A stretch of 64,000 bases of DNA from positions 1,302,001 through 1,366,000 of the forward strand of contig NZ_AP022576.1 of the NCBI RefSeq assembly GCF_010730355.1, read 5' to 3'. Position numbers and translations under genes: made by a program. Shown in pieces: positions 755 to 57,165 of the stretch. Position 1 is the stretch's first letter, and the number at the start of each line of letters is the position of its first letter. Origin of the DNA: Mycobacterium florentinum (GTDB taxonomy: Bacteria; Actinomycetota; Actinomycetes; Mycobacteriales; Mycobacteriaceae). The notes below the pieces were generated by a model, which worked only from the letters and a program-made list of their open reading frames with translations, made no database searches and was not told where the DNA came from.

Positions 755-1816
755 ATGACCGTCCCGGCAGTTTTCGCATTACGGCCACCTGAAATCAATT
801 CCGCACTGATGTATGCGGGAAACGGTTCCGGCTCGATGCTGGCCGCGGCATCGGCGTGGCGAAGTCTCGCCGCAGAACTGCATCACACCGCGTCGGCGTT
901 TGCCTCGACGATAACCGCGCTGGTCGACGAGCACTGGCACGGCCCGGCGTCGGCATCGCCGGCAGCCGCCGCCGCGGCACGCTATACGAGGTGGATGAAG
1001 TCCACCGCGGCCTGGGCCGACCGCACCGCCATGCAAGCCGACGCGGCCGCGGTCGCTTACGAAACCGCTTTCGCCGCAACCGTTCCGCCGGCAGTGGTCG
1101 CGGCCAACCGCAGCGAGCTGGCTTACCTGGTGGCGACCAACCTCCTCGGTCAGAACACCCCGGCAATCATGGCCACCCAGGCGCAGTACATCGAGATGTG
1201 GGCGCAAGACGCCGATGCGATGACCGGCTACGCGGTCGCGTCGATGGCCGCCGCGCAGCTGACTCCTGCTGTCGTACCGCCCAAGGTCGCCAACCCTGGC
1301 TTGACCGACGACCCACCCGCGCCACCATGGCAGCCGCCGCAATGGTGGACGGACTTCATCAACAACTGGGGACCGAACTCGAACTTGGTGAACTCCCTTG
1401 CCACCATGGTCTCCGGCTTCGCCCTGCCCACCACGTATGCGGGCTTGAGTGGCAGCGGCGACGTGGCGGCCGCGGCCGGGGATGGTGCCGCGGCAGCGGC
1501 GGATGCGGCAGCTGTTGACACCGGGGCGATCGGTGCCGAGCTGGCACGAGCGACCGGTTTCGGAGCCGTCGCGGCCGGCACGGGCAACGCGATGCCGATC
1601 GGCAAGCTGGCGGTGCCGCAGAGCTGGACCACCGCCGCCGAAATAACCCGCGTCGTCACGCCGATCGGCACTCCGCTGGTTGCGCCACCGCACGAGGCGG
1701 CGGCCGGTATGCCCGCGATGCCGATCGCGAACGTCGGCGGCCGAAACGTCGCGCGCCACGCCCCGCAGTACGGCTTCCGCCCACAGATCGTCACGCGGCC
1801 GCCGTCGGCGGGCTGA
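755..1816 (+). CDS. PPE family protein, SVP-like subgroup
   Basis: A 353-residue protein with the PPE domain at the N-terminus: the [12 protein letters not shown] signature at residues ~11-22, a long alanine-rich helical region, and the WHGPAS (WxG-type) turn near residue 61. The C-terminal part holds GKLAVPQSW, which fits the GxxSVPxxW motif of the SVP subgroup, and the tail [14 protein letters not shown] is typical of that group. PPE proteins are usually exported by ESX type VII systems with a PE partner; no PE gene lies directly upstream. ATG at 755 was chosen because it places the PPE motif near the start; ATG at 748 is out of frame. The stop codon falls inside a short repeat shared with the end of the downstream decarboxylase gene. 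Confidence 0.9.
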
Positions 1817-1885
1817 GCGTCAGGCGTCCTCGGTCTGCTTGACGCAATCGCCGTTGCGCGCGCCGTGCGGCCGTAGAACTCCCCC
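1817..1885 (-). pseudogene. Remnant of a decarboxylase 3' end (second copy of the tail of the gene ending at 3925)
   Basis: Read on the minus strand, this stretch ends in GARNGDCVKQTEDA and a stop. The large decarboxylase ends in GARNGDRVRQSVGEDA. The DNA is clearly related (CGTCAGGCGTC and CCGTTGCGCGC blocks), and the only length difference is 6 bases, two whole codons. Just upstream in the same remnant is a 19-base match encoding GEFYGR, which is also present inside the decarboxylase near 5772-5790. This looks like the leftover of a second, mostly deleted decarboxylase copy. The region 1817-2048 otherwise shows no gene. Confidence 0.4.
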
Positions 1886-2048
1886 GCCGCCGCCGCGGCG
1901 CTGGCCGGCCAGTGCGGGTTGCTCGATGAGCCGGCCGCCACGGGGCAACGACAGCGCTGACAAGGCGGCCGCAGATCGGCCCGCGCAGGCCAGGACTGGC
2001 CTGCCCGGACAGTGGGCTGAGCCGTCGCGCGACAGCAGAGTCGACATC

Positions 2049-3689
2049 GTGGACAGCACCATGCAAGACCTGCCGTTGACCGTGGCGGCCATCCTGCATC
2101 ACGGCACGACCGTGCACGCCCGGCGCAAGGTGACCACCGCGACCGCCGACGGCTACCGCGAGGCCAGCTACGGCGGGGTCGGCGCGCGCAGCGCGCGGCT
2201 GGCCAACGCGTTGCGCGGCCTCGGCATCAGTGGCGACCAACGCGTGGCCACCTTCATGTGGAACAACCAGGAGCACCTCGAGGCCTACCTCGCCGTGCCG
2301 TCGATGGGCGCGGTGCCGCACACCTTGAACATCCGGCTGCCCCCGGATCAACTGATCCACATCGCCACCCAGGCCCGGGACGAGGTGATACTCCTGGATC
2401 TGTCCCTGGCGCCGACTTTCGCGCCGGTCGTCGCCGGCCTGCGCGACGTCCACTCGATCGTCGCGGTCGGGGACGGTGACCTCGATGTCCTGGTCGGCAC
2501 CGGCAAGACGGTGCTGCGCTACGAGAGCCTGCTTGCCGATCAACCGGCCACCTTCGCCTGGCCGGACCTGGCCGAAAACACCGCCGCCGCAATGTGTTAC
2601 ACCAGCGGCACCACCGGCGATCCGAAAGGTGTCGTCTACAGCCACCGGTCCACCTACCTGCATTCCATGGCCGCGTGCAGCGCCAATGGTCTGGCCGTCG
2701 CGGACGGTGACCGGCTGTTGCCCATCGTGCCGATGTTTCACGCCAACGCCTGGGGGCTGCCGTATGCCGCGCTGATGGCCGGAGCCGACCTGCTGCTGCC
2801 GGACCGCTTTCTGCAGGCGCCGCGGCTCATCGAGATGATCGAGGCGCAACGCCCAACCATCGCCGGGGCGGTCCCGACGATTTGGAACGACGTCGCGCAA
2901 CGATTGGACGACGACCCCGGCCGCGACATCTCCAGCCTGCGACTGGTCGCGTGCGGCGGGTCGGCGGTGCCGCCGGCGATGATGATGGACTTCGAGCAGA
3001 AATACGGCGTGGCGATCCGCCAAGCCTGGGGCATGACCGAAACCTCGCCGCTGGCGGCCATCGCCTGGCCCCGCCGGACGTTTCGTACGAGGAGCACTGG
3101 GCGTTGCGCGCGACGCAGGGCCGTCCGGTGCGGCGTGCGGGCCCGCATCGTCGGCGACGATCGGGAAGTGCTGCCCAACGACGGAACATCGGTGGGCGAG
3201 TTGGAGGTCCGCGGGCCGTGGATCACCGGGTCCTACTACCAACATGCCGACGATTCGAATTTCCATGACGGCTGGCTGCGCACCGGCGATGTGGGAACCA
3301 TCGATGACCGCGGCTACATCACCCTGACCGACCGGGCCAAGGACGTGATCAAATCGGGTGGCGAATGGATCTCCTCGGTCGAACTCGAACATCGCATCAT
3401 GGAGCACCCGGCGGTCCACGAGGCCGCGGTGGTGGCGGTGCCCGACCCGCGTTGGCAGGAGCGGCCATTGGCGGCCGTGGTGGTCAACGACCCCGCGGTG
3501 GGGGCCGTGGAGTTGCGTCGGTACCTCGCCGACCGCGTGGCGCGTTGGTGGTTGCCGGAGCGGTGGACATTCGCCGACGAGATCCCCCGGACCACCGTCG
3601 GGAAATTCGACAAGAAACTGATTCGGGCCCGCTACGCCGAGGGCGCCTTGTCCATCGTGGAATGTCGCGACCCAGTGGTCAGTAGCTGA
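2049..3689 (+). CDS. Long/medium-chain fatty-acid--CoA ligase (FadD-like) with an internal frame-shifted segment
   Basis: An ANL-superfamily acyl-AMP/acyl-CoA ligase of 546 residues if started at GTG 2049 (MDSTMQDLPLT; ATG 2061 is the alternative). Visible motifs are the P-loop YTSGTTGDPKG, QAWGMTETSP, the hinge region LRTGDVGTIDDRGYITLTDR with KSGGEW, and the C-terminal catalytic lysine region PRTTVGKFDKK. Right after MTETSPLAAIAWP the frame reads arginine-rich nonsense. The family sequence (PPDVSYEEHWALRATQGRPV) is present in another frame between about 3069 and 3131, then the original frame resumes at CGVRARIVG. A missing C in the CCCC run at 3069-3072 and two missing bases near 3128-3131 explain this exactly. 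About 21 residues, including the conserved GRP turn, are therefore scrambled. The enzyme may be impaired, or the sequence may contain errors. Confidence 0.75.
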   Translation: MDSTMQDLPLTVAAILHHGTTVHARRKVTTATADGYREASYGGVGARSARLANALRGLGISGDQRVATFMWNNQEHLEAYLAVPSMGAVPHTLNIRLPPDQLIHIATQARDEVILLDLSLAPTFAPVVAGLRDVHSIVAVGDGDLDVLVGTGKTVLRYESLLADQPATFAWPDLAENTAAAMCYTSGTTGDPKGVVYSHRSTYLHSMAACSANGLAVADGDRLLPIVPMFHANAWGLPYAALMAGADLLLPDRFLQAPRLIEMIEAQRPTIAGAVPTIWNDVAQRLDDDPGRDISSLRLVACGGSAVPPAMMMDFEQKYGVAIRQAWGMTETSPLAAIAWPRRTFRTRSTGRCARRRAVRCGVRARIVGDDREVLPNDGTSVGELEVRGPWITGSYYQHADDSNFHDGWLRTGDVGTIDDRGYITLTDRAKDVIKSGGEWISSVELEHRIMEHPAVHEAAVVAVPDPRWQERPLAAVVVNDPAVGAVELRRYLADRVARWWLPERWTFADEIPRTTVGKFDKKLIRARYAEGALSIVECRDPVVSS

Positions 3690-3816
3690 TCCGGATCGTC
3701 TGAGACGGACACATCGACGCGGCACGCACGATCGACTCCTGTTCGCTTGCACCAGGATTGGGATTCAACACCATCACCTGCTCGCCGTCGTCGGGCAGGT
3801 CGACGGTGACGTGCAT
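3679..3816 (-). pseudogene. C-terminal fragment of a ferredoxin
   Basis: A 45-codon frame on the minus strand encodes the second half of a small 3Fe-4S/4Fe-4S ferredoxin: DDGEQVMVLNPNPG, then IVRAASMCPSQTIRISY with the last cluster cysteine and the usual CPxxxI ending. The N-terminal half with the CxxxxxC cluster motif is absent, and the upstream frame leads back to the decarboxylase stop without any such motif. GGGAG stands six bases before the ATG, so a short peptide could still be made, but it cannot hold a normal cluster. Its end overlaps the ligase stop by 11 bases in the convergent direction. Confidence 0.6.
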
Positions 3817-3924
3817 GATGTCTCCCGGGTCAAATCGCTTCTGCCGCAAGTATTGCGTCGTTTCCCCGGGCCGCCGCGGCCCGCGCGCGCCAACGGTGGC
3901 CTGACCGTGCCATCGGGCTAAACG

Positions 3925-47924: not shown

Positions 47925-49397
47925 TCAGAATGGCGGTGGTTCGGGATCGCAAGTCCGCGAGGGTTTTCGGTGGGCCGTGCGCGCTTCGTGATTCTGCCGG
48001 CGCTCGGTGGCAATGCGCGCGGCCCGATTTTGCGCGCGCGTGCGGCGCCGTCGGGGCATCATCGCGGTCCGGTCACCGCAGTAGTCCTGTGGCAGGTCGG
48101 CTTCGGGCGCCGCCAGAGCGCCCGTCGCCAGGCACAGGCTCGGAAACAGCAGCGCGCTGCCCGGTGTGGTGACATGGGTTTGCCCGCCCGGCGACGTCAA
48201 GATCAGCGTCCCGTCGGGCAACTGCTTGTCACGCCATCCCCAGAAGGTTTTGACCAGATGATGAGTCCGGCAGTAGCACTTCAGGTTTGACGCATGCGTC
48301 GGGCCGCCGTCGGCGTACGGGATCGTATGGTCGAGGTCACACTCCACCGCCGGGCGGTCGCAGCCCGGCCAGCGGCACGTCAGGTCCCGGCACCGCACAA
48401 AGTCCTGCAGCGCCCGGGAAGGCACATATCCGCGCTCGGGCGGGGCGTCGGCGGGATGCACAAGCGGCACCAATCTGGCCGACTTCGCCAGTTCCGCAAT
48501 AAGTTCCGGTGCGATCAGGCCGTCCGCACCGAGCTGGGACGCCGGCGCCGAGCCGCGACCGTCGATGCTGGCCTGCTCGGCGATCACGTGAATGACGACG
48601 GGCGATGCGGCCGGACGCCCGCCCGCCGCGCAGTCGGATCGGCCACACCGGCAGCCCAGCCGATCGGCGGCCACTGCCAGCGCCCCCAGCGCATCGGCCC
48701 GACGCTGTTCACGGCCTCGCGGGTCGTGTTCACACACCGTGGCAGCCAACGCATTCAACCGCTTTTCGAGTGCCCGCGCGTCGGGCGTCAACAGGGAACC
48801 GTAGATCTCGGAAGTGCCATCTCCAAGATCGCCGATCCAGATCTCGCGGCCGACCTGCCGTTTGGTGCGCCGCCGTACGCCGTCCGCATCCGCTCTCACG
48901 ACGACCCTGTCGACCTGCCCGGCCAGGCGCCCCTGGGTCATCGATGGCCAACGCGGCACGTTGACCGCCAGCTCCGCGTCGACCCTGGCCAGTATCTCGT
49001 CGTCCGTCAACAGGTCGGTGCGATAGACGATGGTCTGAAACGTCCGATAGTCGATATCGCCGGCCCGGAAAACTTCCGCGACCTTCGGCAGCCGTTCCCG
49101 CATCGCGCGGGCGTACCGAAGGCGGCTGGCCGCCAGGCCCTGACTGATCCGCAGTGCCGCGGCCACCTCGGCGGTCACCGCCTCCACGGTGTCGACCGCC
49201 CACGCTTCGGTGTCCGAACAACCAGAGAGCCGGTAGGCGAACAATTCCCCGATCGCCACCAACTGGGTGGCCGCCGCCCGGTTCTCGAAGCGTGCGGACG
49301 AGCAGATGCGATCCACCAACGCCGCGGAATCGGATGTGGTGCAGGGATAGCGTCGCTCGAAAAGCTCGTCGATCGCTTCACTTCCACTCGAACGCAT
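47925..49397 (-). CDS. 13E12-repeat family HNH endonuclease (DUF222), LexA-controlled
   Basis: A 490-residue mycobacterial 13E12 protein. The N-terminal DUF222 helical region contains ISQGLAASRLRYARAMRERLPKV and FQTIVYRTDLLTDDE. The C-terminal HNH domain, CRWPGCDRPAVECDLDHTIPYADGG and LKCYCRTHHLVKTFWGW, is complete, and an arginine-rich tail follows. ATG 49397 lies inside a perfect LexA box and six bases after a TATGAT -10, which predicts a leaderless, DNA-damage-induced mRNA. These genes are multicopy and resemble selfish elements; their cellular role is unclear. Confidence 0.9.
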   Translation of the reverse strand: MRSSGSEAIDELFERRYPCTTSDSAALVDRICSSARFENRAAATQLVAIGELFAYRLSGCSDTEAWAVDTVEAVTAEVAAALRISQGLAASRLRYARAMRERLPKVAEVFRAGDIDYRTFQTIVYRTDLLTDDEILARVDAELAVNVPRWPSMTQGRLAGQVDRVVVRADADGVRRRTKRQVGREIWIGDLGDGTSEIYGSLLTPDARALEKRLNALAATVCEHDPRGREQRRADALGALAVAADRLGCRCGRSDCAAGGRPAASPVVIHVIAEQASIDGRGSAPASQLGADGLIAPELIAELAKSARLVPLVHPADAPPERGYVPSRALQDFVRCRDLTCRWPGCDRPAVECDLDHTIPYADGGPTHASNLKCYCRTHHLVKTFWGWRDKQLPDGTLILTSPGGQTHVTTPGSALLFPSLCLATGALAAPEADLPQDYCGDRTAMMPRRRRTRAQNRAARIATERRQNHEARTAHRKPSRTCDPEPPPF

Positions 49398-51997: not shown

Positions 51998-52897
<900 letters not shown>

Positions 52898-52967: not shown

Positions 52968-54764
52968 GTGGTGACGGAGTCATTCGGACATTACGAGTTG
53001 CGTGAGCTGCTGGGCCGCGGTGGCATGGGGCAGGTCTTTCGTGCGTATGACACCAGCACGGACCGCGTGGTCGCGCTGAAGGTGTTGCCGGCGCATCTGG
53101 CCGACGACGAGGAGTTTCAGCAGCGCTTTCGCCGTGAGGCGCGGATCGCGGCGAGCCTGAGCGATCCGCACATGGTGCCGATCCACAGCTACGGCGAGAT
53201 CGACGGCCGGCTGTATGTCGATATGCGCCTGATCGAGGGTCGCGACCTGCTCGCCTACATCGCCGAGAACGGCGGCCGGCTCAGCCCGGAGCGAGCCGTG
53301 GCGGTGGTCGAACAGGTTGCCGCGGCACTGGATACGGCCCATGAGGTCGGGTTGATCCACCGCGACATCAAACCGTCCAACATCTTGGTGTCGGCCCGCG
53401 ATTTCGTCTATCTGATCGACTTCGGGCTGGCCCGCACCGCCGCCGACACCGCGCTGACCCACACCGGGCACACGATGGGCACGATGGCCTACATGGCCCC
53501 GGAACGCTTCCGGGGCATGACCGATCACCGCGCCGACGTGTACGCGCTGGCCTGCGTGCTCTACGAATGCCTGACCGGACACCTGCCCTATCCCGGCGAC
53601 ACGTTCGAAGAGCAGCTCAACGCGCATCTGAACACCCCGCCGCCGCGAGCCTCGTTCAGAGCGCCCGGCGTCCCACCCGCCCTCGACGACGTAGTCGCCC
53701 GCGGTATGGCCAAGGACCTCAACTACCGCTACCAAACGGCCATCGAGTTCGCCGAAGCCGCCAAGGCCGCCCTGGCCGGCCACCACACCACCGCAACGCC
53801 CACCCCGACACCACCGCAGTACCCACCCACAGCGGCCACCCCAGCACCACCGCCAGCCGGGCCCGCGGCCCATACCCCGCAACAACCCCCACCGCAAAAA
53901 TCGAACAACAAGCTGATCATCGGCATCGTCGCCGCCTCGATCTTCACGCTTGCCATGGTCACGATCCTGGTCATCGCCCTGGTGACCAACGGCGACTCCC
54001 CGTCGAACAACGCGACGTCCAGCACCGCGCCGCATCCCAGAACCCCCAAGCAGGGGCCCGCCTTCGGCGCACCGGGAGCACCGACGACCTCGGCAAATCC
54101 CGACGGGAACGCCGTGCCGCCGCTGCCGGTGTTTGCTCCACCGGCCGACCTGGGCGCCAACTGCCAATATCAGCCCGTGGGCAGCGACTCCGTGGACGCA
54201 TCCCCCAAGCCGGTCAACCTGCCTCCGTCCGGCAGGGTATCGACTACGCCCGCGAAGATCCCTGCGACTATCACCACCAACTTCGGCAATATCGGCATCC
54301 AGCTCGACAACGACAAGAGCCCATGCACGGTGAACAGCTTCACCAGCCTGATCCGCCAACAATTCTTCAACAACACCACATGCCCCCGGCTATCCGTCGG
54401 CTCCGACGGCGGAATGCTGGTGTGCGGCGGCCCCGACAAGGATGGCAACGGTGGTCCGGGTTACGAATTCGCCGACGAATATCCCACCAACCAATATCCG
54501 CCGGGCGATCCCGCGCTCAGGGCGACCGTTGTATACCCGCGCGGGACCGTGATCATGGCCAGCAACGAACCCAACACCAACGGTAGTCAATTCGTCATGT
54601 TCTTCCGGGATGCCGAATCGCCGCCGACGTACACGGTGTTCGGCACAATCGACGAGGCCGGCCTCGCGGTCCTCGACAAGATCGCAGCGGCCGGTGTCGC
54701 CGGCAACCGCCCGAGCGGCCTTCCAACATCCCCGGTGGGGATTGGCACGGTGCGGCTCGGCTGA
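52968..54764 (+). CDS. Transmembrane Ser/Thr protein kinase with extracellular cyclophilin domain (fusion)
   Basis: A 598-residue receptor kinase. Residues ~8-270 form a complete Hanks-type kinase: LLGRGGMGQVF, K38, HRDIKPSN (D132), DFG (D151), a Thr-rich activation loop THTGHTMGT, and MAPER. A Pro/Thr-rich segment, a transmembrane helix (~316-340) and a linker follow. Residues ~385-598 are a cyclophilin domain closely matching the neighbour PpiB, including VPPLPVFAPPADLGANCQY, GNIGIQLDNDKSPCTVNSF and PPTYTVFGTIDEAGLAVLDKIA. The catalytic arginine is kept (R474), but the conserved Gln reads Val (V485) and the second Phe reads Val (V543), so the domain may bind proline peptides rather than turn them over. 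It starts at GTG 52968, or GTG 52971. Confidence 0.95.
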   Translation: MVTESFGHYELRELLGRGGMGQVFRAYDTSTDRVVALKVLPAHLADDEEFQQRFRREARIAASLSDPHMVPIHSYGEIDGRLYVDMRLIEGRDLLAYIAENGGRLSPERAVAVVEQVAAALDTAHEVGLIHRDIKPSNILVSARDFVYLIDFGLARTAADTALTHTGHTMGTMAYMAPERFRGMTDHRADVYALACVLYECLTGHLPYPGDTFEEQLNAHLNTPPPRASFRAPGVPPALDDVVARGMAKDLNYRYQTAIEFAEAAKAALAGHHTTATPTPTPPQYPPTAATPAPPPAGPAAHTPQQPPPQKSNNKLIIGIVAASIFTLAMVTILVIALVTNGDSPSNNATSSTAPHPRTPKQGPAFGAPGAPTTSANPDGNAVPPLPVFAPPADLGANCQYQPVGSDSVDASPKPVNLPPSGRVSTTPAKIPATITTNFGNIGIQLDNDKSPCTVNSFTSLIRQQFFNNTTCPRLSVGSDGGMLVCGGPDKDGNGGPGYEFADEYPTNQYPPGDPALRATVVYPRGTVIMASNEPNTNGSQFVMFFRDAESPPTYTVFGTIDEAGLAVLDKIAAAGVAGNRPSGLPTSPVGIGTVRLG

Positions 54765-54780
54765 GCCGGATTACGACGCC

Positions 54781-57165
54781 TTAGGCGGCAGATGTCACCC
54801 GGTAGACGTCGTAGACGCCTTCGACATTGCGCACGACGTTCAGCAGGTGGCCGAGGTGCTTGGGGTCGCCCATCTCAAAAGTGAAGCGGCTGATCGCAAC
54901 TCGGTCCCCCGAGGTGGTGACCGACGCCGACAGGATGTTCACCTTCTCGTCGGCAAGCACCCGCGTGACGTCCGAGAGCAACCGGTGCCGGTCGAGCGCC
55001 TCGACCTGAATCGCCACCAGAAACACCGACGACGGCGACGGCGCCCAGAGCACCTCGATGATGCGCTCGGCCTGCTGCTGCAGTGACGCGGCGTTGGTGC
55101 AGTCGGTGCGGTGCACGCTGACGCCGCCGCCGCGGGTGACGAAGCCCATGATCGCGTCCCCCGGCACGGGCGTGCAGCACTTCGCCAGCTTGGTCAGTAC
55201 GCCGGGAGCGCCGGGGACCGACACACCGACGTCGTCGGTGCTGCGCGGGCGGCGCAACATCGTTGTCGGCGTGGACCTTTCGGAGAGATCGTCTTCGGCC
55301 TGGTCGATGCCGCCCAGCTCGGCCAGCAGCCGTTGCACGACGTGGCGCGCCGACACATGTCCCTCACCGATCGCGGTGTACATCGCGGACACGTCGGTGT
55401 AGTGCAGTTCGCGGGCCACCGCCGCCATGGCCTCACCATTGACCAAGCGCTGCAACGGAAGTCCGCCGCGGCGGACCTCGCGGGCCATCGCCTCTTTGCC
55501 GGCCTCCAGCGCCTCCTCGCGGCGCTCCTTGGCGAACCACTGCCGGATCTTCGCCTTGGCCCGCGGCGACACCACGAATTGCTGCCAGTCCCGCGACGGT
55601 CCGGCGTTGGGCGCCTTGGAGGTGAAAACCTCTACAACTTCCCCGTTGTCGAGCTTGCGTTCCAGCGCCACCAGTCGACCGTTGACCCGGGCGCCGATGC
55701 AACGGTGGCCGACCTCGGTGTGCACCGCGTAGGCGAAGTCCACCGGCGTCGAACCGGTCGGCAGCGTGACGACATCACCCTTGGGGGTGAACACGAAGAT
55801 CTCTTGCACCGCAAGGTCGTAACGCAACGACTCCAGGAACTCGCCCGGGTCGGCGGCCTCACGTTGCCAGTCGAGCAGCTGCCGCATCCAGGCCATGTCG
55901 TCGATCTCGGCGGCGGCGTGCGGATGCAGAACTCCGTTGCGGCCCTTGGCTTCCTTGTAGCGCCAGTGCGCGGCGATGCCGTATTCGGCGGTGCGGTGCA
56001 TGTCGCGGGTGCGGATCTGCACTTCCAGCGGCTTGCCCTCCGGCCCGACGACCGTGGTGTGCAGCGACTGGTAGACACCGTATCTGGGCTGGGCGATGTA
56101 GTCCTTGAAGCGCCCCGCCATCGGCTGCCAGAGCGAGTGCACCACACCCACGGCGGCATAGCAGTCCCGGATCTCGTCGCACAGGATGCGGATGCCGACC
56201 AGGTCGTGGATGTCGTCGAAGTCGCGACCCTTGACGATCATCTTCTGGTAGATCGACCAGTAGTGCTTGGGTCGGCCCTCTACTGTCGCTTTGATTTTCG
56301 ACGCGCCGAGCGTGGCGACGATTTCGGCGCGGACCTTGGCCAGATAGGTGTCCCGGGACGGTGCACGCCCGGCGACCAGGCGAACGATCTCCTCGTACTT
56401 CTTGGGGTGCAGGATCGCGAACGACAGGTCTTCCAGCTCCCACTTCACGCTGGCCATACCCAGCCGATGTGCAAGCGGCGCAATGACTTCCAACGTCTCG
56501 CGGGCTTTGCGGGCCTGCTTTTCCGGCGGCAGGAAGCGCATGGTCCGCATGTTGTGCAGCCGGTCGGCGACCTTGATCACCAGCACCCGCGGGTCGCGCG
56601 CCATCGCGGTGATCATCTTGCGGATCGTCTCGCCTTCGGCGGCGTTGCCCAGCTCGACGCGGTCCAGCTTCGTCACCCCGTCGACGAGATGGCCCACCTC
56701 GTCACCGAATTCCTCGCTCAAGGCCTCCAGCGTGTACCCGGTGTCCTCGACGGTGTCGTGCAGCAACGCGGCCACCAAAGTGGTGGTGTCCATGCCCAAT
56801 TCGGCGAGAATGTTCGCGACGGCCAGCGGATGGGTGATGTAGGGATCACCGGAACGCCGCAATTGACTGGCATGACGCTGGTCGGCGACCTCGAACGCCC
56901 GGTTGAGCATCGAGAAGTTCGCCTTGGGATAGATTTCCCGGTGCACCGCCACCAACGGCTCGAGCACGGGGTTGAACGCGCTGCGCTGGGCGGTCATCCG
57001 CCGGGCCAGCCGGGCCCGGACCCGACGGGACGCGCTGCTGGTCGTCTTCAGGGTTTCGGTCGGTGGCTCCGGCGTGCCCGCCACGTCGGTCGGCGGCGAG
57101 GCCGGCGACTCGATAGGCGGCACCACAGCTTGCGCCGTGCTTTGCTCATCCGCCACGTTGGTCAC
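54781..57165 (-). CDS. relA: Bifunctional (p)ppGpp synthetase/hydrolase Rel
   Basis: A 794-residue long RSH protein controlling the stringent response. In order: the HD hydrolase domain ([33 protein letters not shown]), the synthetase domain ([54 protein letters not shown]), the TGS domain ([39 protein letters not shown]), a zinc-finger/helical part and a C-terminal ACT domain. The intact HD motif means it should both make and degrade (p)ppGpp. It is the last gene after apt (22-base gap) in the secD-F cluster and converges on the kinase gene. It starts at GTG 57165. Confidence 0.97.

What the first reader, a model, noticed from the sequence alone, without database searches (positions are those of the whole stretch)
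52968..54764. Receptor-type Ser/Thr kinase whose extracellular domain is a cyclophilin copied from the adjacent ppiB
A complete kinase and one transmembrane helix are followed by a whole cyclophilin domain. That domain shares its linker (VPPLPxFxPxxxxGANCQYxP) and fold sequence with the PpiB gene 70 bases upstream, so the fusion most likely arose by tandem duplication of ppiB into a kinase gene. I do not recall a described kinase with this ectodomain. In the copy the catalytic Arg is kept, while a conserved Gln and Phe are both Val. This suggests a proline-peptide sensor that would pass envelope or unfolded-protein signals to the cytoplasm, next to the stringent-response gene relA.
Basis: partly seen in the sequence, partly recalled or inferred. 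Interest (0 to 1): 0.88.

Follow-up and report, generated by a model that had tools for sequence, protein, structure and literature searches.

The report
Receptor kinase with altered cyclophilin ectodomain
This mycobacterial gene encodes a membrane protein kinase whose outer part is an old copy of a protein-folding enzyme that has lost most of its active site, which suggests that an enzyme was turned into a sensor.

Summary
In detail: one unbroken 598-aa frame at 52968-54764 holds a Hanks-type kinase, one TM helix and a cyclophilin domain, 70 bp after ppiB. The architecture is not new: Krupa & Srinivasan (2005) listed 'kinase + TM + peptidyl-prolyl isomerase' in M. avium paratuberculosis. A window-type ectodomain sequence occurs in 39 of 248 sampled Mycobacterium genomes. 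It is not a recent copy of this genome's PpiB (56% identity; grouping rejected, AU p 1e-42); 36 of 43 fusion domains, the window's included, form one clade apart from all 44 PpiB. What appears new: (i) in that clade the PPIase pocket is dismantled (intact six-residue signature in 0 of 115 kinase fusions against 62 of 63 of the sister type), while four cysteines are kept and Ka/Ks is 0.20-0.35; (ii) relatives show other states at the locus: no kinase, kinase without cyclophilin, kinase with intact cyclophilin, tandem fusions; (iii) 34 of 35 units of this type have a TANNNT box 6-7 nt before the start codon, predicting a leaderless mRNA, while 11 of 12 relatives have a Shine-Dalgarno-like run. 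Best reading: a receptor kinase with a pseudo-cyclophilin sensor; ligand unknown.

The parts
51998..52897 (+). ppiB: membrane-anchored cyclophilin (299 aa), active-site signature R-Q-Q-F-L-Y intact; paralogue of the ectodomain
   Evidence: PF00160 at 135-295, 91.5 bits; TM 26-57; residues
52956..52961 (+). TAAGGT, -10-like TANNNT box, 6 nt between it and the GTG start; predicts a leaderless mRNA
   Evidence: TANNNT at exactly -12..-7 in 31 of 35 window-type units and at -12 or -13 in 34 of 35; consensus from PMC3898074 (passages)
52968..54764 (+). kinase-TM-pseudocyclophilin fusion gene, 598 aa
52992..53780 (+). Hanks-type Ser/Thr kinase domain (aa 9-271), PknE/PknD/PknH-like; K38, HRD 131-133, DFG 151-153 and T164 invariant in the 63 fusions aligned
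   Evidence: PF00069; best solved relative PknE 2h34, 305 bits; invariant columns
53781..53903 (+). Pro/Thr-rich cytoplasmic juxtamembrane segment (aa 272-312)
   Evidence: sequence
53904..53999 (+). single transmembrane helix (aa 313-344)
   Evidence: Kyte-Doolittle maximum 2.72 over 19 residues
54000..54122 (+). Ser/Thr/Pro-rich outer linker (aa 345-385)
   Evidence: sequence
54123..54761 (+). cyclophilin-fold ectodomain (aa 386-598) with degenerate PPIase pocket (R474 kept, V485 for Gln, Q541 kept, V543 for Phe, S551 for Leu, Y555 kept) and four conserved Cys (399, 453, 472, 486)
   Evidence: PF00160 434-580; residue counts
54781..57165 (-). relA, convergent neighbour; not part of the unit
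   Evidence: ORF list; neighbour in related loci

Best explanation
A single-pass receptor Ser/Thr kinase whose outer domain is a pseudo-cyclophilin. Shown by sequence: a kinase domain with its catalytic motifs, one TM helix, a PpiB-descended ectodomain that keeps its fold residues and four cysteines but has lost most of the proline-binding pocket, purifying selection on it, and a promoter-like box of its own. Inferred: the ectodomain sits outside the membrane like PpiB, is held by disulfides, and no longer catalyses prolyl isomerisation. It binds a ligand or partner protein in the cell envelope through a remodelled face, which changes receptor dimerisation and so trans-autophosphorylation of the activation loop (T164/T166) and phosphorylation of cytoplasmic substrates. 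History (inferred from trees): ppiB was duplicated beside itself early in the slow-growing mycobacteria and joined to a PknE-like kinase; the ectodomain was first PPIase-competent and became a pseudoenzyme in the M. avium/M. simiae-type lineage.
For: Domains and frame. Kinase motifs invariant in the 63 fusions aligned, chosen from the 120 listed hits. The 49 locus-family kinase rows form one clade against 10 other kinases (99/96; likewise 41 rows against 19 own-genome kinases and two of L108, SH-aLRT 98). Intact-cyclophilin fusions branch first and the 35 degenerate-type rows lie in one derived clade (99/98), giving the direction intact to degenerate. 36 degenerate ectodomains form one clade apart from all 44 PpiB (100/99; 18 of 18 in the rooted subset). 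Pocket residues: PpiB 44 of 44 have R55, Q63, Q111, F113, L122, Y126; degenerate type keeps Q63 in 7, F113 in 4, L122 in 3, Y126 in 3, but R55 in 29 and Q111 in 35 of 36, and each Cys in 33-36 of 36. Wider set: 0 of 115 intact against 62 of 63. Of 91 columns near-invariant in PpiB, 6 of 9 pocket columns are lost against 17 of 82 others (Fisher p 0.007). Ka/Ks 0.20-0.35 for the ectodomain against 0.05-0.16 for PpiB's domain in six genomes. PpiB of M. tuberculosis is reported PPIase-active, in membrane and secreted fractions, and mannosylated (passages).
Against: No ligand, substrate or activity has been measured. The catalytic Arg is kept in 29 of 36, and this copy also keeps Y555, so residual activity is possible. 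Six genomes have the kinase with no cyclophilin, so the kinase can persist without it. Seven of 43 fusion domains lie outside the window's clade, so one history does not fit all. Some deep forks are weak (80/67). The pocket test has few columns, and rows are related by descent.
Confidence: 0.6

Rival explanations
1. Bifunctional folding helper: the ectodomain is still an active PPIase that folds envelope proteins, and the kinase tunes or anchors it (the 2005 suggestion for M. avium).
For: Fold, four Cys and mostly the catalytic Arg are kept. Sister fusions (62 of 63) have an intact signature, so this may be true for them. Suggested in PMC1262709.
Against: Intact signature in 0 of 115 fusions of the window's type; the M. 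avium subsp. hominissuis protein P0092 is of this type and reads L, A, M, S at the Q63, F113, L122 and Y126 positions; Q63, F113 and L122 are all replaced in the window's copy.
Confidence: 0.17
2. Inert spacer on its way out: the ectodomain is decaying and the kinase is what matters.
For: Six genomes have the kinase and TM without the cyclophilin; the ectodomain evolves faster than the kinase and PpiB; in G097 only the second half of the ectodomain is matched (L101).
Against: Ka/Ks 0.20-0.35 is well under 1; four Cys kept in 33-36 of 36; tandem units keep full-length ectodomains in most cases; some replacements are near-fixed (W121 position Glu 28 of 36, Q63 position Leu 25 of 36), not random.
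Confidence: 0.15
3. Chaperone or partner receptor: the ectodomain binds PpiB itself or another envelope protein through a face outside the old active site.
For: Recombinant M. tuberculosis PpiB is reported oligomeric with chaperone activity (abstract); the first fusion unit lies next to ppiB in every locus that holds both (the L108 stretch shows no relA, glx or hisS match).
Against: No interface could be modelled; adjacency may only reflect origin; pocket columns change most.
Confidence: 0.2
4. Assembly or frame artefact, or a recent one-off fusion in this genome.
For: None found for the window.
Against: 39 of 248 genomes hold the same ectodomain type; 116 of 120 listed protein clusters carry the kinase too; conserved gene order.
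Confidence: 0.01

Closest known systems
Kinase + TM + peptidyl-prolyl isomerase STYK of M. avium subsp. paratuberculosis (gi|41407147, Krupa & Srinivasan 2005)
   Same: Same three-part architecture (passages read)
   Different: The 2005 passages give one species and suggest help in folding; I saw no active-site comparison in them. Here: wide distribution, pseudoenzyme signature, locus series, promoter difference. The paratuberculosis protein itself was not examined here, only an M. avium subsp. hominissuis one (P0092)
PknE of M. tuberculosis (DSBA-like, thioredoxin-family ectodomain)
   Same: Nearest solved kinase domain (2h34, 305 bits); also a folding-catalyst-type ectodomain according to PMC1262709, where the protein is given by gi number (that it is PknE is recalled)
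   Different: Different ectodomain fold; different locus (recalled)
PknD / PknH-type receptor kinases of the same genome
   Same: Same kinase subfamily: L031 (beta-propeller matches), L029 and L022 (PknH_C) are 55-63% identical in the kinase
   Different: Unrelated ectodomains; outside the locus clade
PpiB (secreted or membrane cyclophilin)
   Same: Family from which the ectodomain descends; same linker and Cys pattern
   Different: PpiB keeps the catalytic pocket; 56% identity
StpK7 (MSMEG_1200, phage-related kinase)
   Same: Kinase region 2-355 matches (442 bits)
   Different: Below the family cut-off of 900; the C-terminal part is not matched

Membership tests
Hanks-type receptor Ser/Thr kinase (PknD/E/H-like) | Complete kinase domain with Lys, HRD, DFG, activation-loop Thr | tested here: met
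   PF00069 151 bits; K38, H131-D133, D151-G153 and T164 invariant, T166 at least 90% in the 63 fusions aligned
Hanks-type receptor Ser/Thr kinase (PknD/E/H-like) | Single TM between kinase and outer domain | tested here: met
   One segment 313-344 by hydropathy
Hanks-type receptor Ser/Thr kinase (PknD/E/H-like) | Ligand-regulated kinase activity | not testable with these tools
   Needs biochemistry
Kinase-TM-Pro_isomerase architecture of Krupa & Srinivasan 2005 | N-terminal kinase, central TM, C-terminal Pro_isomerase domain | tested here: met
   definition
Catalytic cyclophilin-type PPIase | Cyclophilin family match (PF00160 above cut-off) | tested here: met
   70.5 bits, cut-off 21.7
Catalytic cyclophilin-type PPIase | Conserved active-site set R55, Q63, Q111, F113, L122, Y/H126 | tested here: not met
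   Q63 to Val, F113 to Val, L122 to Ser in this copy; R55, Q111 and Y126 kept; 0 of 115 fully intact in its type
Catalytic cyclophilin-type PPIase | Measured PPIase activity | not testable with these tools
   Needs assay
StpK7 equivalog (NF052427) | Whole-protein score over 900 | tested here: not met
   441.8 bits, residues 2-355 only
PASTA kinase (NF033483) | Whole-protein score over 450 and PASTA repeats | tested here: not met
   309.4 bits; match ends at residue 311, no PASTA domain in the Pfam scan
Copy of same-genome PpiB | Domain groups with PpiB of the same genome | tested here: not met
   AU p 1.0e-42
Leaderless mycobacterial transcript | TANNNT box 7-12 bp upstream of a start site at the start codon | tested here: inconclusive
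   Box at the right place in 34 of 35 units; start site not mapped

The most novel reading that the evidence does not exclude
A traceable case of enzyme-to-sensor conversion in bacterial receptor kinases: an active secreted prolyl isomerase was captured by a kinase, lost its catalytic pocket, became a fast-evolving ligand-binding domain, came under its own leaderless promoter, and duplicated into tandem receptors that keep similar kinases (83-90% identity) but divergent ectodomains (56-66%), while sister species preserve the intact and the lost states.
Probability: 0.45. Interest if true: 0.72.

Novelty: new variant of a known kind. Interest (0 to 1): 0.5.

Why it matters
Ligands of most mycobacterial receptor kinases are unknown (recalled). 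Here the ectodomain has a well-understood enzymatic ancestor, and living relatives hold the intact, the degenerate and the missing versions on the same kinase family at the same locus. That makes it directly testable whether a receptor kinase sensor arose from a folding enzyme and what was lost or gained. It would also correct the only published functional guess that my searches found for this architecture, folding help in M. avium.

Tried and rejected
Recent copy of own ppiB: rejected. Frame error: rejected by recurrence. Single origin of all kinase-cyclophilin proteins: not held; G209 (L108) and eight further protein clusters carry a different kinase, and L107 and L082 unit 1 ectodomains nest inside PpiB, pointing to replacement or re-fusion. 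One clade for the other 40 fusions is not rejected (AU p 0.43). Kinase-without-cyclophilin as the ancestral state: not favoured, because those six kinases nest beside the szulgai/angelicum fusions (91/91). Functional tie to relA: no support. Fusions outside the genus: 18 loci around long-frame matches chosen were fetched; 0 of 18 have a kinase in the cyclophilin frame; other matches, whose list was cut, were not followed. In one search L091 was compared with its second copy by mistake, so it is left out of the Ka/Ks range quoted (six of seven genomes). Rows dropped: L101_c2 (short), L008 (same genome as L078), kinase pieces of L070 and of L087 unit 1 (broken frames), L108 from the tree. One search did not capture the start of the second L077 unit or of L085; its Shine-Dalgarno pattern was loose, and start codons were chosen to fit the box where possible.

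Papers: PMC1262709, PMC4794191, PMC12757957, PMC3898074, PMC13355554, PMC6213207 and PMC3140968 were seen as passages only; the rest as search listings. That I found no later study of this kinase rests on searches of an open-licence library and is not proof.

Full report
OBSERVATION. The frame at 52968-54764 (+) is open from GTG to stop, 598 aa. Pfam finds a protein kinase at 9-222 and a cyclophilin at 434-580, both far over cut-off. Hydropathy gives one TM segment, 313-344, and one in PpiB, 26-57. ppiB ends 70 bp upstream; relA is convergent, 16 bp downstream. The genome is a Mycobacterium; the nearest named proteins and loci include M. triplex, M. genavense and M. montefiorense. Whole-genome counts: three cyclophilin places, the window's ppiB and fusion and one more that I take for PpiA, and 29 kinase-like places, 27 of them over the Pfam cut-off. 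'Slow-growing' and 'M. avium/M. simiae-type' are recalled labels of named species; most genomes searched are unnamed.

NOT UNIQUE, NOT UNDESCRIBED. The protein search with the ectodomain lists the best 120 of 859 hits; 116 of the 120 carry PF00069, the window's own included. Those with a species name are all Mycobacterium, among them M. avium subsp. hominissuis, M. scrofulaceum, M. malmoense, M. marseillense, M. nebraskense and M. saskatchewanense. By my reading of the listed rows, 39 of 248 sampled Mycobacterium genomes hold a domain at least 61% identical to the window's ectodomain; not each was checked for the kinase. By my reading, 37 of 198 genomes have a kinase at least 67% identical, leaving aside G070 and G183, whose outer parts look like solute-binding proteins; G148 (59%) and G076 (broken frame) fall below that line. 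Krupa & Srinivasan (2005, PMC1262709) list 'Kinase + trans-membrane segment + peptidyl-prolyl cis-trans isomerase domain' for M. avium subsp. [quoted passage not shown] avium among the mycobacterial genomes then complete (passages).

LOCUS SERIES. Around the hisS-glx-ppiB-relA block I saw: (a) no kinase match (L096, L100, L144-L148; in L096 and L146 other frames lie between ppiB and relA); (b) kinase plus TM and a short tail, no cyclophilin (L134-L139, six genomes; relA is outside the stretch held in L135 and L137); (c) kinase fused to a cyclophilin with an intact active site (L009, L010, L095, L097, L107, first unit of L082; L141 repeats L010); (d) kinase fused to a degenerate cyclophilin, one unit (the window and most others) or two in tandem (L071, L072, L073, L077, L087, L091, L094); L082 carries one unit of each type; (e) in L098, L102 and L104 a second cyclophilin on a DUF4190 membrane domain (PF13828), and in L103 on a plain hydrophobic segment (by eye). 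L108 (G209) carries a fusion with a different kinase (41% identity to the window's), with no hisS, glx or relA match in the stretch held; eight further protein clusters share that kinase type.

ORIGIN. Cyclophilin tree, 94 rows: 36 of 43 fusion domains, the window's included, form one clade (100/99); 44 PpiB, 7 second cyclophilins and the other 7 fusion domains lie on the other side. The window domain is 56% identical to its own PpiB and 56-58% to the eight closest PpiB listed; grouping with its own PpiB is rejected (AU p 1.0e-42). In a rooted subset of 67 rows the degenerate clade (18 rows) has a stem of 0.30 and stands unresolved beside three intact-type fusions and the PpiB of the related species. 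One clade of 40 fusions is compatible with the data (AU p 0.43), so one duplication and one fusion is the simplest reading for those. L107 and L082 unit 1 are exceptions: their domains nest deep in PpiB, and between kinase and TM they carry a basic segment like PpiB's own N-terminus, so re-fusion or replacement by a neighbouring ppiB probably happened. Kinase tree (59 rows): 49 locus-family rows are one clade (99/96); intact-type fusions branch first (some forks weak, 80/67), the degenerate type lies in one clade (99/98, which also holds L140, a copy elsewhere in G143 without a cyclophilin), and the kinase-only group nests beside the szulgai/angelicum fusions (91/91), so loss of the cyclophilin there is likelier than an ancestral lack of it. 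The nearest solved kinase is PknE (2h34). Close paralogues in this genome carry beta-propeller or PknH_C outer domains, so this is ectodomain exchange within a known subfamily.

PSEUDOENZYME SIGNATURE. Positions were mapped by alignment to this genome's PpiA; the human CypA numbers and their roles are recalled. PpiB: R55, Q63, Q111, F113, L122, Y126 in 44 of 44. Intact-type fusions: 7 of 7 for each. Second cyclophilins (7): R55 6, Q63 7, Q111 7, F113 6, L122 6, Y126 7. Degenerate type (36): R55 29, Q63 7, Q111 35, F113 4, L122 3, Y126 3; the four cysteines 35, 35, 36, 33. In the set of 240 proteins the six-residue signature is intact in 0 of 115 degenerate-type and 62 of 63 intact-type fusions carrying the window's kinase family; these proteins came from two searches that favour each type, so the numbers per type mean nothing, only the contrast. 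An M. avium subsp. hominissuis protein (P0092) is of the degenerate type. Among 91 columns nearly fixed in PpiB, pocket columns are lost more often (6 of 9 against 17 of 82, Fisher p 0.007) and are more variable; rows are related, so the p value is indicative. The ectodomain is still constrained: Ka/Ks 0.20-0.35 in six genomes against 0.05-0.16 for PpiB's domain and 0.07-0.16 for the kinase (L091 left out).

TANDEM UNITS. In six genomes with two measurable units, the two kinases are 83-90% identical while the two ectodomains are 56-66% identical. The ectodomains of seven second units form their own clade at the base of the degenerate type, but their kinases lie inside the kinases of the window's near relatives. 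I read this as the kinase halves having been kept alike while the outer halves diverged; that is inference.

PROMOTER. Just before the window's GTG is TAAGGT at -12 to -7. Of 35 degenerate-type units examined, 31 have TANNNT at exactly that place and 34 at -12 or -13; T-12, A-11, G-8 and T-7 are invariant in those 31. The exception is L070. TANNNT is rare in the window, 46 places in 64000 on the + strand. Of 12 intact-type or kinase-only genes, 11 have a Shine-Dalgarno-like purine run instead by a loose pattern; the twelfth, L097, has the TANNNT box, so the box is not strictly tied to the degenerate type. A few of the others have a TANNNT further upstream. TANNNT 7-12 bp upstream of start sites, and frequent leaderless mRNAs, are described for M. 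tuberculosis (passages). So the degenerate type probably has its own promoter and a leaderless message, whereas most others look coupled to ppiB. No transcript was measured.

MECHANISM. PpiB of M. tuberculosis is reported as PPIase-active, chaperone-like, oligomeric, found in membrane and secreted fractions, and mannosylated (passages). That supports an outer location for the homologous domain. With most of the proline pocket gone, I think the domain binds without catalysis, and binding alters dimerisation and activation-loop phosphorylation, as is generally thought for receptor kinases of this kind (recalled). The ligand is unknown; 'proline peptide' is not favoured by the residues.

LIMITS. 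No structure prediction was possible. Outside the genus only 18 long-frame candidate loci in the order were checked, with 0 fusions.

Noticed in passing
L108 (G209), 1623-3860 +: Kinase-cyclophilin fusion with a different kinase (41% to the window's), long linker, TM and intact cyclophilin, followed by a second kinase gene; eight further protein clusters share this kinase type.
   Followed up: partly
L098, L102, L104 (second cyclophilin beside ppiB): The second cyclophilin sits on a DUF4190 membrane domain instead of a kinase; its role is unknown.
   Followed up: partly
L134-L139: Six genomes have the kinase with TM and a Thr-rich tail but no cyclophilin, close to ppiB; looks like domain loss.
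   Followed up: partly
L142, L143: Kinases of the same subfamily whose outer part looks like a solute-binding protein (judged by eye from the translation).
   Followed up: no
   Followed up: no
L140 (G143:C1 near 3074750): A dispersed copy of the kinase with a similar upstream box but no cyclophilin.
   Followed up: no
L067 (G051:C245): A degenerate-type cyclophilin lies on the strand opposite to ppiB and the kinase; rearrangement or misassembly was not resolved.
   Followed up: no
P0203, P0194, P0176: By the Pfam lists or names, a cyclophilin of this family stands in one protein with a kinase and a SecD label, with a signal peptidase domain, or with RelA-type domains; may be frame artefacts or further fusions.
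   Followed up: no
47925-49397 -: A long ORF that looks like a 13E12-repeat/HNH-type protein by eye (recalled, no search made) lies downstream of hisS on the same strand.
   Followed up: no
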